From Alphaproteobacteria bacterium (GTDB lineage Bacteria > Pseudomonadota > Alphaproteobacteria > Micropepsales > Micropepsaceae): 64,000 nt of DNA. Under the pieces are notes generated by a model that had not been told where the DNA came from, did not search any database, and was given only the letters and a program-made list of their open reading frames with translations. Both the position numbers and the translations under genes were made by a program. Shown in pieces: positions 29,517 through 41,466 of the stretch. Positions within the stretch are counted from its first letter, which is position 1, and every line of letters begins with the position of its first letter. The stretch is from assembly GCA_025350465.1 (NCBI GenBank), contig JANXXU010000048.1, forward strand, positions 186,001-250,000, written 5' to 3'.

Positions 29517-30059
29517 GTGGTCGACCAGCTCATACACGTTATTCAGGGGGAGTGCCGCACGAGTGCGGACCCTGACGTCGTGTTGACGACGACCTTGGGC
29601 TCGTGCATCGCCGCGTGCATGCATGATCCTGTCGCCCGTCTGGGTGGCATGAACCACTTCCTATTGCCCGAGGAAGAAGGTGCCGAGCAGTCCGTTTCCA
29701 TGCGCTACGGCGCCTATGCGATGGAGCTTTTGGTCAACGGCCTTATGCGAGCGGGTGCGCGTCGCGATCGTTTGGAAACGAAACTGTTCGGCGGTGGGCA
29801 CTTGTCCAATAGCTTGACGGACATCGGGGAGAAAAATGCAGCTTTTGCCGAACAATTTCTAGCTCGCGAAGGTTTGCGGCTTGTCGGGGGCAGTCTGCGC
29901 GGTCGCCAGGCGCGTCGGATCCAATTTTGGCCGGTGTCAGGGAGAGCCCGCCAATTGGCCTTGCCCATCGGGCTGGAGGCGGCGCTTCACCTCCAAGAGC
30001 GCCGACCGGCGCGCGTGCACGGTTCTGTCGAACTATTTGCGCAATCGAAATCTTCTTAG
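29517..30059 (+). CDS. cheD: Chemoreceptor glutamine deamidase CheD
   Basis: The product is 180 residues from a GTG start. The active-site Cys is in TTTLGSCIAACMHD and the His in GGMNHFLLPEE; KLFGGGHLSN is also characteristic. CheD converts specific receptor glutamines to glutamates and can tune CheA activity. It is the last gene of the operon. In the absence of a local cheB it would be the operon's only deamidase. Confidence 0.9.
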   Translation: MVDQLIHVIQGECRTSADPDVVLTTTLGSCIAACMHDPVARLGGMNHFLLPEEEGAEQSVSMRYGAYAMELLVNGLMRAGARRDRLETKLFGGGHLSNSLTDIGEKNAAFAEQFLAREGLRLVGGSLRGRQARRIQFWPVSGRARQLALPIGLEAALHLQERRPARVHGSVELFAQSKSS

Positions 30060-35097: not shown

Positions 35098-37341
35098 ATG
35101 ACCTCGAATTTGCTTGTCCGCGGACACCCGCTCGGGTGGTCGCGCGTTTTGCTGCGCCGTGCCGGCATGGCCGGCGCGGCACTGTTGACCGCCTTCCTCG
35201 GCTCTTCCGCACTCAGGGCCGACACTACACCTACGCAGCAGCCGGCCGGCTATGTCGAGCCTTCTGAAATGGGCACCGGCTCGTTGCTTCTGAAAACCGT
35301 TGAGCCTGGCCACTATCTCGAAGCGCCGCGCTTGAAGACCGACGTCTCGATCACCGTGACCGGGCCGATCGCGCGCGCCCGGATCACGCAGCGTTTCGAA
35401 AACCCTTCCGACAAATGGGTCGAAGGCGTCTACGTCTTCCCGCTGCCGCCGAATTCCGGCGTCGACACCTTGCGCATGCAAATCGGCGACCGCTTTCTCG
35501 AAGGCGACGTGAAAGAACGCGAACAGGCGCGCCAAATCTACGAGCACGCCGCTGCGCAAGGCATCAAAGCGACGCTGATTGAACAGCAGCGGCCGAACAT
35601 GTTCACGAACTCGGTCGCCAATATCGGCCCGCACGAAACGGTGGTCGTGCAGATCGAGTATCAGGAAGCCGTCAAATTGGACGGCGACAAATTTTCGCTG
35701 CGCGTGCCGCTCGTCGTCGGTCCGCGTTACACGCCGCCCGCTACAGTTGCGGTAGCCGACGTCTCGACGTCGGGCGCGCGCGTCGTGGCGGTCAGCGATC
35801 CGGTGCCGGATCGAGATTCTGTGACACCTCCCGTGCTCAACCCGATCTTCGGCAAAATCAATCCCGTCTCGCTCAGCATCACACTGAAGTCCGGCGTGTC
35901 GTTGGCCACGATCGAAAGCCCATATCATCCGGTTGACGTCGCCCGTACCGACGATAAAACCGCGACGGTCACGCTCAAGGGCCCGGTGCCGGCTGATCGT
36001 GACTTCGTCTTAAACTGGAAGCTCGCGGCGAACGCCGTACCGCAAGCGACGCTCTTCCGCGAGACGATCGCCGGTCAGAACTACTATCTGGCGATGGTCG
36101 TGCCGCGGGTCGGCACCACGGCGCCGCGCCGTCAAGCGCGCGAGGCGATCTTCGTCATCGACAACTCGGGTTCGATGGCCGGTGAGTCGATCAAACAGGC
36201 GAAGAAGGCGCTGAGCCTTGCCTTGCAAGACCTCAAGGCGGGCGATCGCTTCAACGTGGTGCGCTTCGACGACACGCTGACGGTGCTCTTCAACGACGCG
36301 GTGCCGGCGGACGCCGAACACATGGCGGTCGCGCAGCGTTTCGTTTCTTCGCTCGAAGCGGCCGGCGGCACCGAAATCTACCCGGCACTGAAGGCGGCGC
36401 TGAAAGATACGACGCCGAAGGACGAGACGCGGTTGCGCCAGGTGATCTTCCTGACCGACGGCGATGTGAGCAATGAGGACCAGGTGCTGGCGGAGATCGG
36501 CACGTCGCTTGGCCGCTCGCGCCTGTTCACGGTCGGCATCGGATCGGCGCCTAACACGTTCTTGATGGAGCACATCGCGACGCTCGGCCGCGGTACCTTC
36601 ACGCATATCGGAACGGTCGAGGAAGTCGACGCGCGCATGGCCGAGCTCTTCAACAAGCTCGAACGCCCGGTCATGACCGATCTGCATGTCACGACAAACG
36701 ACGCGAAACTCGAGACGTGGCCCAATCCGATCCCCGACCTCTATGCCGGCGAACCAGTCGTGTTGACCGGAGCGACGAGTGAGCGGGCAGGGACGCTTCG
36801 CCTCGAGGGTCGCATGGGCGGCAAGCCGTGGTCGGCGACACTCGATCTGTCGACGGCCGTCGACGGCAATGGCGTGGCGAAGCTGTGGGCGCGTTCCAAG
36901 ATCTCCGCGATCGAAGACACGCGCTATCACGGCACCAACCAAGGCGATGTCGACGCGGCGGTTCTCAAAGTCGCGCTCGCGCATCATCTCGTGTCGCGCC
37001 TGAGCAGTCTGGTTGCGGTCGATGTGACGCCGAGCCGTCCGGCCGGCGAAAATATGTCGAGCGAAGCTATGCCGACCAATCTTCCGGCCGGCTGGGACTT
37101 TGCCAAAGTCTTCGGCGAAGACCCGTCGAACCCAATGATCAAGGCGTCGCTCGACCAAAAGCTGATGGACAAGCTTGCGTCGAGCGAGAAGTCGGCGGCC
37201 TCAAAGCCGAATGGCGGCGTGGGCGTCGAGTTGCCGCAAACCGATGCGGGAACCAATTTGCAAATCCTGCTCGGGCTTTTGCTGACGTTGTCGGGCACGG
37301 CGATGTTGCTGATGCTCCGTAAGCGGACGGTTCGGTCATGA
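35098..37341 (+). CDS. Sortase substrate with VIT and vWA domains (marine proteobacterial type)
   Basis: The product is 747 residues. A signal peptide (about 1-41, hydrophobic AGMAGAALLTAFLGSSALRA) is followed by a VIT domain (about 60-190). A von Willebrand A domain begins near 351 with a complete metal site DNSGS. The C-terminus is a sorting signal: LPQTDAG (codons at 37231-37251), a 20-residue hydrophobic helix, then RKRTVRS. This arrangement is the partner of class GN sortases in Gram-negative bacteria. Its stop overlaps the sortase start by four bases. The role is unknown; vWA domains often bind proteins through metal. GGGAG six bases upstream supports the ATG. Confidence 0.9.
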   Translation: MTSNLLVRGHPLGWSRVLLRRAGMAGAALLTAFLGSSALRADTTPTQQPAGYVEPSEMGTGSLLLKTVEPGHYLEAPRLKTDVSITVTGPIARARITQRFENPSDKWVEGVYVFPLPPNSGVDTLRMQIGDRFLEGDVKEREQARQIYEHAAAQGIKATLIEQQRPNMFTNSVANIGPHETVVVQIEYQEAVKLDGDKFSLRVPLVVGPRYTPPATVAVADVSTSGARVVAVSDPVPDRDSVTPPVLNPIFGKINPVSLSITLKSGVSLATIESPYHPVDVARTDDKTATVTLKGPVPADRDFVLNWKLAANAVPQATLFRETIAGQNYYLAMVVPRVGTTAPRRQAREAIFVIDNSGSMAGESIKQAKKALSLALQDLKAGDRFNVVRFDDTLTVLFNDAVPADAEHMAVAQRFVSSLEAAGGTEIYPALKAALKDTTPKDETRLRQVIFLTDGDVSNEDQVLAEIGTSLGRSRLFTVGIGSAPNTFLMEHIATLGRGTFTHIGTVEEVDARMAELFNKLERPVMTDLHVTTNDAKLETWPNPIPDLYAGEPVVLTGATSERAGTLRLEGRMGGKPWSATLDLSTAVDGNGVAKLWARSKISAIEDTRYHGTNQGDVDAAVLKVALAHHLVSRLSSLVAVDVTPSRPAGENMSSEAMPTNLPAGWDFAKVFGEDPSNPMIKASLDQKLMDKLASSEKSAASKPNGGVGVELPQTDAGTNLQILLGLLLTLSGTAMLLMLRKRTVRS

Positions 37342-37937
37342 TCACGAAACGCAGGATGGCGGCGCTCGCCGCCATCCTGGTTCTGATGAGCGGGGTCGTG
37401 CTCGGCGGGCACGGCCTCTTCATTCGCGCCAAAGCAGCGGTCGCTCAGGTTTTGCTTGAGCGCGCCTGGGCGCAGACGGTTGAGACACGCCGCCCGGTGA
37501 AGGCTTGGGCGTGGGCCGACACATGGCCCGTCGCACGGATCAGCTTCCCGCGCCTGGACCGCTCGGCGGTCGTGCTCGAGGAAGCCGGCGGCGAAGCTTT
37601 GGCATTTGGCCCTGCGCACGTCGCGGCCTCGCCGTTGCCAGGCGAGAACGGCACCAGCGTCATCGCCGGGCACCGCGACACGCATTTCGATTTCATCAAA
37701 GATCTAAAACCTGGCGACGAGATCGACGTTACGACGCGCGCCGGCAAGACGATTGCCTTCCGCATGACCGGCTCGGCAATCGTCCACGCGCAAGCCTCCG
37801 GCATCGACGCATCGGGCGCAAGTCCACGGCTGGCGCTCGTCACCTGCTATCCGTTCGACGCCTTGGGCCGCGCACCGTTGAGGTACGTCGTGTTCGCGGA
37901 ACCAATCGGAGACCGCTCGCTTGTGTCGAGCAGATAA
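37338..37937 (+). CDS. Class GN (Gram-negative) sortase
   Basis: The product is 199 residues. An N-terminal membrane helix (about 7-26) leaves the catalytic domain in the periplasm. The sortase triad is clear: His112 in AGHRDTHFDF, Cys170 in LALVTCYPFD and Arg182 in APLRYVVF. It should cut the LPQTDAG signal of the protein encoded just upstream and join it to an unknown acceptor. The two genes overlap by four bases and no other sortase gene is in view. The pairing is known from family surveys of proteobacteria; what the substrate is attached to in a Gram-negative envelope is not established to my knowledge. Confidence 0.92.
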   Translation: MITKRRMAALAAILVLMSGVVLGGHGLFIRAKAAVAQVLLERAWAQTVETRRPVKAWAWADTWPVARISFPRLDRSAVVLEEAGGEALAFGPAHVAASPLPGENGTSVIAGHRDTHFDFIKDLKPGDEIDVTTRAGKTIAFRMTGSAIVHAQASGIDASGASPRLALVTCYPFDALGRAPLRYVVFAEPIGDRSLVSSR

Positions 37938-39999: not shown

Positions 40000-41466
40000 T
40001 CACAACTGTTGGGCTCGTTGGGTCAGGCCCGAGATGCAGGTGTGCTTGTTCCGAGCCAATTCCCGTTTAGTCATTTCTTTCGCCTGCGCAATCTGGGAAG
40101 GGGTCATTTCGCGAACAACCAGATTCCGACCGTTCATCGCATCGGTATTTCCTTTTGCCGACGCAAGATTGAACCACATGTGCGCATGCACATAGTCCTT
40201 TGTGACGCCTCGCCCGTTCGCGTACATGACTCCTAGATTGAACTGACCCAGTGCATCGCCTTGCTCCGCCGCGAGTCGATACCACCTTACAGCTTCCTCT
40301 TCGTTCTTACTGACGCCGCGCCCACTGCCAACCATTTCACCAAGCGCAACCTGTGCCATCGGAGAGCCTTGATCCGCAGCCAACCGGTACAATTTGACCG
40401 CTTTCTTATCGTCGTGTGCAACACCCAGCCCATGGGCATACAATTCGCCCAGCATTTCCTGTGCGTCCGCAGAGCCCTGTTGCGATGCGAGCTGGAACCA
40501 TTTGACCGCTTCCTTCTCGTTCTTTGGTACGCCCAATCCGCCCACAAGCATTAGTCCCAGTTTTGTTTGCGCATCCGAATCACCGCTCTCTGCGAGAGAA
40601 CGAAATATCTTGAGTGCCGATGCATAGTCGCCCCGATCGAGCGCAGTAATGCCATCTTCAATGAAACCGACAGCCGTCAACCCGTTGTCGCAGTCATGCT
40701 GCCTCGCAATTTCCTGCGCTTGCTCAATCTGTGCGGATGTCATTCGTGATGAAATGGCTGAGCGTTGTCGTTTCGCGTCAGCATCACCTTTCGCAGCCGC
40801 AAGGTTGAACCAGAAGTATGCCCTCGCATTGTCTTGCTCGACAGCGTCAAATCCGCTCGCGTACATCGACCCGAGAATTCCCTGTGCCTCTACATAGCCA
40901 TTTTCAGCAGCGAGATGCCACCACTTCACGGCTTCCTGTTTGTCCAAGCGAACGCCGCTCCCGTTCATGTGCTTGTCACCGAGAATGTATTGCGCTCGTG
41001 CGCATCGTTGTTCCGCCGCGAGCCGATACCACTTGACTGCATCGTTCTCGCTTTTCTGGATACCTTGTCCCTTCTCGAACATAATACCAAGATTGCACTG
41101 CGCCTCCGCAAAACCTTGTTCCGCAGACCGCCGATACCACTTGACCGCTTCTTGTTGGTTCTTCGCCACGCCTTGCCCGTTCGCATACATGAAGCCGAGA
41201 TGGTTCCCCGCGTCCGCATTGCCCTGTTCCGCTGCTCGCTTAAGCCATTTTGCCGTCTCCCTCAGGTTCTGCGCAACACCTTGTCCTCGCGCGTACATCA
41301 ACCCGAGATTCGTCTGAGCGTTTGCGTTGCCGCTTTCCGCCTCTTCGTGAAATACTCTCAGTAAAATTGAAGAACCCTGATCCGATGAAGTAGTATGGCA
41401 ATTCTTTGTATCGAAGCCGAACACGCGAATGCCAGCATTCAATGCACCACGGATGAGGTTGACCAT
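40000..41466 (-). CDS. Sel1-like repeat protein with internal duplication
   Basis: The product is 488 residues made of about ten Sel1-type helical repeats of 36 residues, consensus AQxxLGxMYxxGxGVxKNxxEAVKWYRLAAEQG. It falls into two blocks. Each block ends with the same cap (FWFNLAAAKGDADAK...MTSAQIEQAQEIAR and MWFNLASAKGNTDAM...MTPSQIAQAKEMTK), so two ancestral proteins appear fused head to tail. No signal peptide is seen, so a cytoplasmic scaffold is likely. The gene is visibly richer in A and T than its neighbours and lies in a patch with other mobile or decayed genes, suggesting acquisition. The first ATG gives an odd N-terminus that may be truncated. Confidence 0.75.
   Translation of the reverse strand: MVNLIRGALNAGIRVFGFDTKNCHTTSSDQGSSILLRVFHEEAESGNANAQTNLGLMYARGQGVAQNLRETAKWLKRAAEQGNADAGNHLGFMYANGQGVAKNQQEAVKWYRRSAEQGFAEAQCNLGIMFEKGQGIQKSENDAVKWYRLAAEQRCARAQYILGDKHMNGSGVRLDKQEAVKWWHLAAENGYVEAQGILGSMYASGFDAVEQDNARAYFWFNLAAAKGDADAKRQRSAISSRMTSAQIEQAQEIARQHDCDNGLTAVGFIEDGITALDRGDYASALKIFRSLAESGDSDAQTKLGLMLVGGLGVPKNEKEAVKWFQLASQQGSADAQEMLGELYAHGLGVAHDDKKAVKLYRLAADQGSPMAQVALGEMVGSGRGVSKNEEEAVRWYRLAAEQGDALGQFNLGVMYANGRGVTKDYVHAHMWFNLASAKGNTDAMNGRNLVVREMTPSQIAQAKEMTKRELARNKHTCISGLTQRAQQL

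What the first reader, a model, noticed from the sequence alone, without database searches (positions are those of the whole stretch)
35098..37937. Two-gene Gram-negative sortase system with one dedicated vWA substrate
Seen: a secreted VIT-vWA protein ends LPQTDAG, a hydrophobic helix and RKRTVRS. The next gene, overlapping by four bases, encodes a sortase with His112, Cys170 and Arg182 in place. Known: class GN sortases and their single vWA partner are recognised families in proteobacteria, but the anchoring target and purpose are not established as far as I know. Inference: the vWA protein is cut and joined to an envelope acceptor, and the intact metal site suggests it binds another protein outside the inner membrane.
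Basis: partly seen in the sequence, partly recalled or inferred. Interest (0 to 1): 0.6.

Follow-up and report, generated by a model that had tools for sequence, protein, structure and literature searches.

The report
Known Gram-negative sortase and its substrate
Two overlapping genes encode an already catalogued Gram-negative enzyme (class GN sortase) and the single exported protein it very probably trims at the tail; the pair is ordinary for its family, but related genomes show the same protein paired with two unrelated trimming enzymes instead, which suggests that removing its membrane tail is what matters.

Summary
Window 35098-37341 encodes a 747-aa VIT-vWA protein ending LPQTDAG, a hydrophobic helix and RKRTVRS. 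It overlaps by four bases (ATGA) a 199-aa sortase with His112, Cys170 and Arg182. Both genes pass the curated cut-offs of existing NCBIfam equivalogs, TIGR03788 and TIGR03784, and the pairing was described in print in 2011 (PMC3237569). It is a new member of a known dedicated system.

Tests here add four points. (1) In 289 alphaproteobacterial genomes the pair is adjacent in 27 of 28 sortase carriers. (2) Three of the four genomes with the vWA protein but no sortase have PEP-CTERM-type tails beside an exosortase T; the fourth is cut off at a contig end. One extra paralogue has a GlyGly-like tail beside a rhombosortase. (3) The window's genus uses LPQ[T/G]DAGT where most relatives use Px[T/G]AT, so a mature C-terminal Thr is not a fixed expectation. 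(4) A conserved neighbour exists only elsewhere: a divergent regulator and kinase (PdsR/PdsS) in about 20 loci, OmpA-like proteins in some.

Most likely the vWA protein is cut and moved to an amine acceptor in the periplasm. Acceptor and purpose remain unknown.

The parts
35098..37341 (+). VIT-vWA exported protein, 747 aa, TIGR03788 sortase target
   Evidence: 770.5 bits vs curated cut-off 551.65; VIT and vWA domains
35098..35220 (+). probable signal peptide of the target (MTSNLLVRGHPLGWSRVLLRRAGMAGAALLTAFLGSSALRA)
   Evidence: read from the sequence; no signal-peptide predictor available, inference
35335..35661 (+). VIT domain
   Evidence: PF08487 116.5 bits
36148..36597 (+). vWA domain; MIDAS D355-x-S357-x-S359, T425, D454
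   Evidence: PF13768 70.8 bits; MIDAS residues in 77 of 79 aligned relatives
37231..37251 (+). sorting motif LPQTDAG (residues 712-718)
   Evidence: TIGR01167 24.4 bits, only match over cut-off in the genome
37258..37338 (+). C-terminal hydrophobic helix and basic tail (RKRTVRS)
   Evidence: Kyte-Doolittle peak 1.99 at residues 721-739
37338..37937 (+). class GN sortase, 199 aa, one N-terminal helix (hydrophobic peak at residues 11-29)
   Evidence: TIGR03784 208.2 bits vs 158.25; PF04203; sortase fold in AF2 model, pLDDT 90
37671..37673 (+). catalytic His112 codon
   Evidence: invariant in 81 of 81
37845..37847 (+). catalytic Cys170 codon
   Evidence: invariant in 80 of 80
37881..37883 (+). 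catalytic Arg182 codon
   Evidence: invariant in 80 of 80

Best explanation
A dedicated class GN sortase system with one substrate. The VIT-vWA protein is exported and held in the inner membrane by its C-terminal helix and basic tail. The neighbouring membrane-anchored sortase cuts within LPQTDAG, most likely after Thr715, forms a thioester through Cys170, and passes the protein to an amine-bearing acceptor in the periplasm. The acceptor is most plausibly a peptidoglycan stem-peptide amine or an aminated lipid headgroup. This frees the metal-binding vWA head from the inner membrane, so that it can act as a binding platform elsewhere in the envelope. Shown: gene pair, domains, catalytic residues, predicted fold, co-occurrence and tail architecture. 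Inferred: cleavage site, transpeptidation, acceptor, final location and ligand.
For: Both proteins exceed curated equivalog cut-offs. The triad is invariant in all relatives that reach those columns. The AF2 model has pLDDT 90 and matches solved sortases of classes A, C, D and E, top E-value 4.8e-12. The sortase is the only PF04203 match in the genome; the target is the only TIGR03788 match over cut-off and the only LPXTG-type tail over cut-off (the tail model also rings over cut-off in 9 of 14 control genomes, so it is a weak test). In 289 alphaproteobacterial genomes, 27 of 28 sortase carriers have the target adjacent on the same strand, with profile matches 36-171 bases apart; the exception lies near a contig end. 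Three targets without a sortase carry a PEP-CTERM-type tail and an exosortase T neighbour instead, so tail type and enzyme switch together. The pairing is described in PMC3237569.
Against: No processing, acceptor or location was measured, here or in any paper found in the held library. PMC10581121 states that the role in Gram-negatives is unknown. The motif is not LPXTG: Asp follows Thr, and family members vary even at the residue before the presumed cut. The correlation of sortase and target divergence (r = 0.69) is expected of any linked pair.
Confidence: 0.72

Rival explanations
1. The sortase acts mainly as a site-specific protease: it cuts off the membrane tail and water takes the place of an amine, so the vWA protein is released as a soluble periplasmic or secreted protein and is not anchored.
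For: The same protein family is served by three unrelated enzymes in related genomes: sortase, exosortase T and rhombosortase (also reported in PMC3237569). What they plainly share is loss of the C-terminal helix. No acceptor gene is conserved beside the pair in this lineage.
Against: Sortases characterised in Gram-positives are transpeptidases (established knowledge). [quoted passage not shown]
Confidence: 0.18
2. A sub-case of the best explanation: the acceptor is a lipid or other small amine, not peptidoglycan, so that the protein stays membrane- or surface-associated, as with rhombosortase products.
For: Homologous vWA proteins in other genomes use tails whose processing enzyme does this in one studied case.
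Against: No direct evidence; the studied case is an unrelated enzyme and an unrelated protease substrate.
Confidence: 0.25
3. The pair is a decaying remnant with no current function in this genome.
For: Patchy distribution: 28 of 289 genomes in the class, and only 11 of 60 in the family.
Against: Both frames are intact with all catalytic and MIDAS residues. In the genus 9 of 11 genomes have the sortase, and the two lacking it are 82-86% complete. The motif is nearly invariant in the genus.
Confidence: 0.03

Closest known systems
Class GN sortase / marine proteobacterial sortase target (NCBIfam TIGR03784 / TIGR03788)
   Same: Both proteins above curated cut-offs; adjacent order target-sortase; single substrate; tripartite tail; complete catalytic triad.
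   Different: The sorting core is LPQ[T/G]DAGT in this genus and not the common Px[T/G]AT.
Proteobacterial dedicated sortase (Pds) locus with PdsR, PdsS and PdsO (TIGR03787, TIGR03785, TIGR03789)
   Same: Shares the sortase and target genes.
   Different: No PdsS or PdsO over cut-off in this genome and none beside the pair; the flanking genes are an Ada/AlkA-type protein, a DUF188 protein and a HI0933-like flavoprotein.
Exosortase T / PEP-CTERM and rhombosortase / GlyGly-CTERM dedicated pairs
   Same: The same VIT-vWA protein family is the substrate-like partner.
   Different: Unrelated enzymes and different tail motifs; the rhombosortase and general exosortase (TIGR02602) models do not pass cut-off in this genome.
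Class D sortases of Gram-positives (for example B. anthracis SrtD, 2ln7)
   Same: Nearest solved relative by sequence (1.5e-12); same fold.
   Different: Below the class D cut-off (88.7 of 165 bits); single dedicated substrate; Gram-negative envelope.

Membership tests
Class GN sortase (TIGR03784) | Score over curated equivalog cut-off | tested here: met
   208.2 bits vs 158.25
Class GN sortase (TIGR03784) | Catalytic His, Cys, Arg | tested here: met
   H112, C170, R182, invariant across relatives
Class GN sortase (TIGR03784) | Encoded next to its single vWA target | tested here: met
   Four-base overlap; one sortase and one target over cut-off in the genome
Class GN sortase (TIGR03784) | Cleaves and transfers the target | not testable with these tools
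   Needs biochemistry
Marine sortase target (TIGR03788) | Score over curated equivalog cut-off over full length | tested here: met
   770.5 bits vs 551.65, profile 1-627 of 629
Marine sortase target (TIGR03788) | C-terminal motif, hydrophobic helix, basic tail | tested here: met
   LPQTDAG, helix 721-739, RKRTVRS; TIGR01167 24.4 vs 15.9 bits
Full Pds locus | PdsO (OmpA-like) present | tested here: not met
   Best 70.1 bits vs cut-off 152.2, OmpA part only, on another contig
Full Pds locus | PdsS histidine kinase present | tested here: not met
   Best 172.4 bits vs cut-off 612.2, on another contig
Full Pds locus | PdsR response regulator present | not tested
   No genome-wide search for TIGR03787; none beside the pair among the neighbouring frames
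Class D sortase | Score over NF033746 cut-off | tested here: not met
   88.7 bits vs 165

The most novel reading that the evidence does not exclude
In this genus the sortase has shifted specificity to an LPQ[T/G]DAGT signal with Asp after the cut, and the vWA protein only needs release from the inner membrane, so that three unrelated enzyme families are interchangeable on one substrate family.
Probability: 0.25. Interest if true: 0.5.

Novelty: new member of a known kind. Interest (0 to 1): 0.25.

Why it matters
The system itself is catalogued, but its acceptor and purpose appear to be unmeasured. The swap of sortase, exosortase and rhombosortase on one protein family gives a clean comparison: whatever the three mature proteins have in common would say what the processing is for. 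The variable residue before the cut also corrects the mass-spectrometry expectation.

Tried and rejected
A conserved third gene beside the pair in this lineage: none; the flanks in the nearest relatives are DUF188 and HI0933-like genes. A frequent downstream neighbour in other alphaproteobacteria reads as UvrB from its sequence and was set aside. Full Pds locus: not met for PdsO and PdsS. PdsO in 50 genomes that carry the sortase: none over cut-off, although three matches of 137-146 bits cover most of the profile. A DNA pattern for LPxT motifs in the genome was uninformative: 127 hits against 146 for the reversed control. Covariation of sortase and target distances (r = 0.69) is not specific evidence. 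A search for acceptor chemistry in the literature gave nothing relevant. The second AF2 job was not used: the VIT-vWA similarity of the target to PARP4 and ITIH chains was already clear by sequence.

Full report
WHAT IS THERE. The window encodes a 747-aa VIT-vWA protein (35098-37341) and, overlapping it by four bases, a 199-aa sortase (37338-37937), both on the + strand. The vWA protein has a signal-peptide-like start, a VIT domain, a vWA domain with a complete MIDAS, and a tail of LPQTDAG, hydrophobic helix and RKRTVRS. The sortase has an N-terminal hydrophobic helix and the triad His112, Cys170, Arg182. The observation as written is correct.

WHAT FAMILY. NCBIfam names both: TIGR03788 (770.5 bits, cut-off 551.65) and TIGR03784 class GN sortase (208.2 bits, cut-off 158.25). 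PMC3237569 (2011) already describes vault-type vWA proteins whose LPXTG tail is the only one in the genome and whose dedicated Gram-negative sortase (TIGR03784) is encoded next door. PMC10581121 (2023) calls the class GN sortases poorly described, with an unknown role. The sortase model (pLDDT 90.1) matches solved sortases of several classes; by sequence the nearest solved one is an LPXTG-site transpeptidase, 2ln7, titled B. anthracis SrtD.

HOW TIGHT IS THE PAIRING. Of 289 alphaproteobacterial genomes sampled, 28 have the sortase and 27 of these have the target adjacent on the same strand; the remaining one (G071) lies within 566 bases of a contig start. Of the four genomes with a target and no sortase, one (G007) is cut off at a contig end. 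The other three (G112, G237, G091) match the target profile only to position 594-595 of 629. Reading their C-termini shows APEPESWAALLL..., SVPEPGTLGGMA... and SAPEPSFWVMMI..., PEP-CTERM-type tails. Two pass the TIGR02595 cut-off and the third is just under it, 15.3 against 16. All three have an exosortase T beside them, 261.6, 339.6 and 385.4 bits against a cut-off of 250. G211 has the sortase pair and also a second, distant vWA paralogue ending GGGTSGGGSSALGPFW..., beside a rhombosortase, 113.4 bits against 84. No GlyGly-CTERM model matched that tail, so the label rests on reading it and on the neighbour. This repeats, in genomes examined here, the tail swap that PMC3237569 reported.

THE MOTIF. 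Across the aligned relatives the core after the Pro is mostly x-[T/G]-A-T. In the window's genus it is Q-[T/G]-D-A-G-T in every member read (window, L002-L007 and L106, L107); two relatives of the same taxonomic family outside the genus have LAAGGTS and LPQGATD (L110, L111). The residue before the presumed cut is Thr or Gly. Whether the sortase's specificity has shifted with the motif was not tested.

NEIGHBOURS. In about 20 relatives, mostly gamma- and deltaproteobacteria, a response regulator and a histidine kinase lie upstream on the opposite strand. Sampled examples are TIGR03787 over cut-off (three of three) and TIGR03785 (one of three over cut-off, two somewhat under). An OmpA-like protein lies beside the target in one sampled gammaproteobacterium (PdsO 146.6 bits, cut-off 152.2), and a Pal/OmpA-like protein lies upstream in Nitrospirota-type loci (one sampled, L066; six in a neighbouring-gene cluster of which L044 and L072 are members). 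In the window's genome PdsO and PdsS do not reach cut-off, and the genes next to the pair are Ada/AlkA-type, DUF188 and HI0933-like, so here the system is a two-gene one.

MECHANISM. The best reading is export, retention by the C-terminal helix, cutting by the sortase, and transfer to a periplasmic amine. Everything after the gene anatomy is inference. The interchange of three unrelated enzymes argues that removing the membrane anchor is the common requirement. It does not identify the acceptor, and plain release is a live rival. In V. [quoted passage not shown]

VERDICT. A real, intact and well-defined member of a known system, with a modest genus-level variation in the sorting signal. Interest is low to moderate; what would raise it is a measured acceptor.

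LIMITS. Genomes other than the named loci are unnamed. Motif statements rest on a MAFFT alignment read by eye. PdsR was not searched genome-wide. The single-substrate claim rests on a short, weak tail model and on the literature description. The paper library lacks most subscription journals, so 'no experimental study found' means only in that library.

Noticed in passing
L112, L113, L114 (G112, G237, G091): The VIT-vWA protein carries a PEP-CTERM-type tail and sits beside an exosortase T where the sortase is absent.
   Followed up: partly
L115 459-1313 and the adjacent vWA gene (G211): A genome with the sortase pair also has a second vWA paralogue with a GlyGly-like tail beside a rhombosortase.
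   Followed up: partly
L066 5867-6664; cluster of L028, L032, L044, L049, L066, L072: A Pal/OmpA-like protein lies directly upstream of the sortase target in Nitrospirota-type loci, resembling in position the PdsO gene of a gammaproteobacterial locus.
   Followed up: partly
L110: A relative in the same taxonomic family ends its target LVLAAGGTS, with no recognisable LPxT, although the sortase is present.
   Followed up: no
window 40000-41466: A 488-aa protein on the - strand with nine Sel1 repeats.
   Followed up: no
window 29517-30059: A frame that reads like a CheD-type chemoreceptor deamidase; named by eye, not searched.
   Followed up: no
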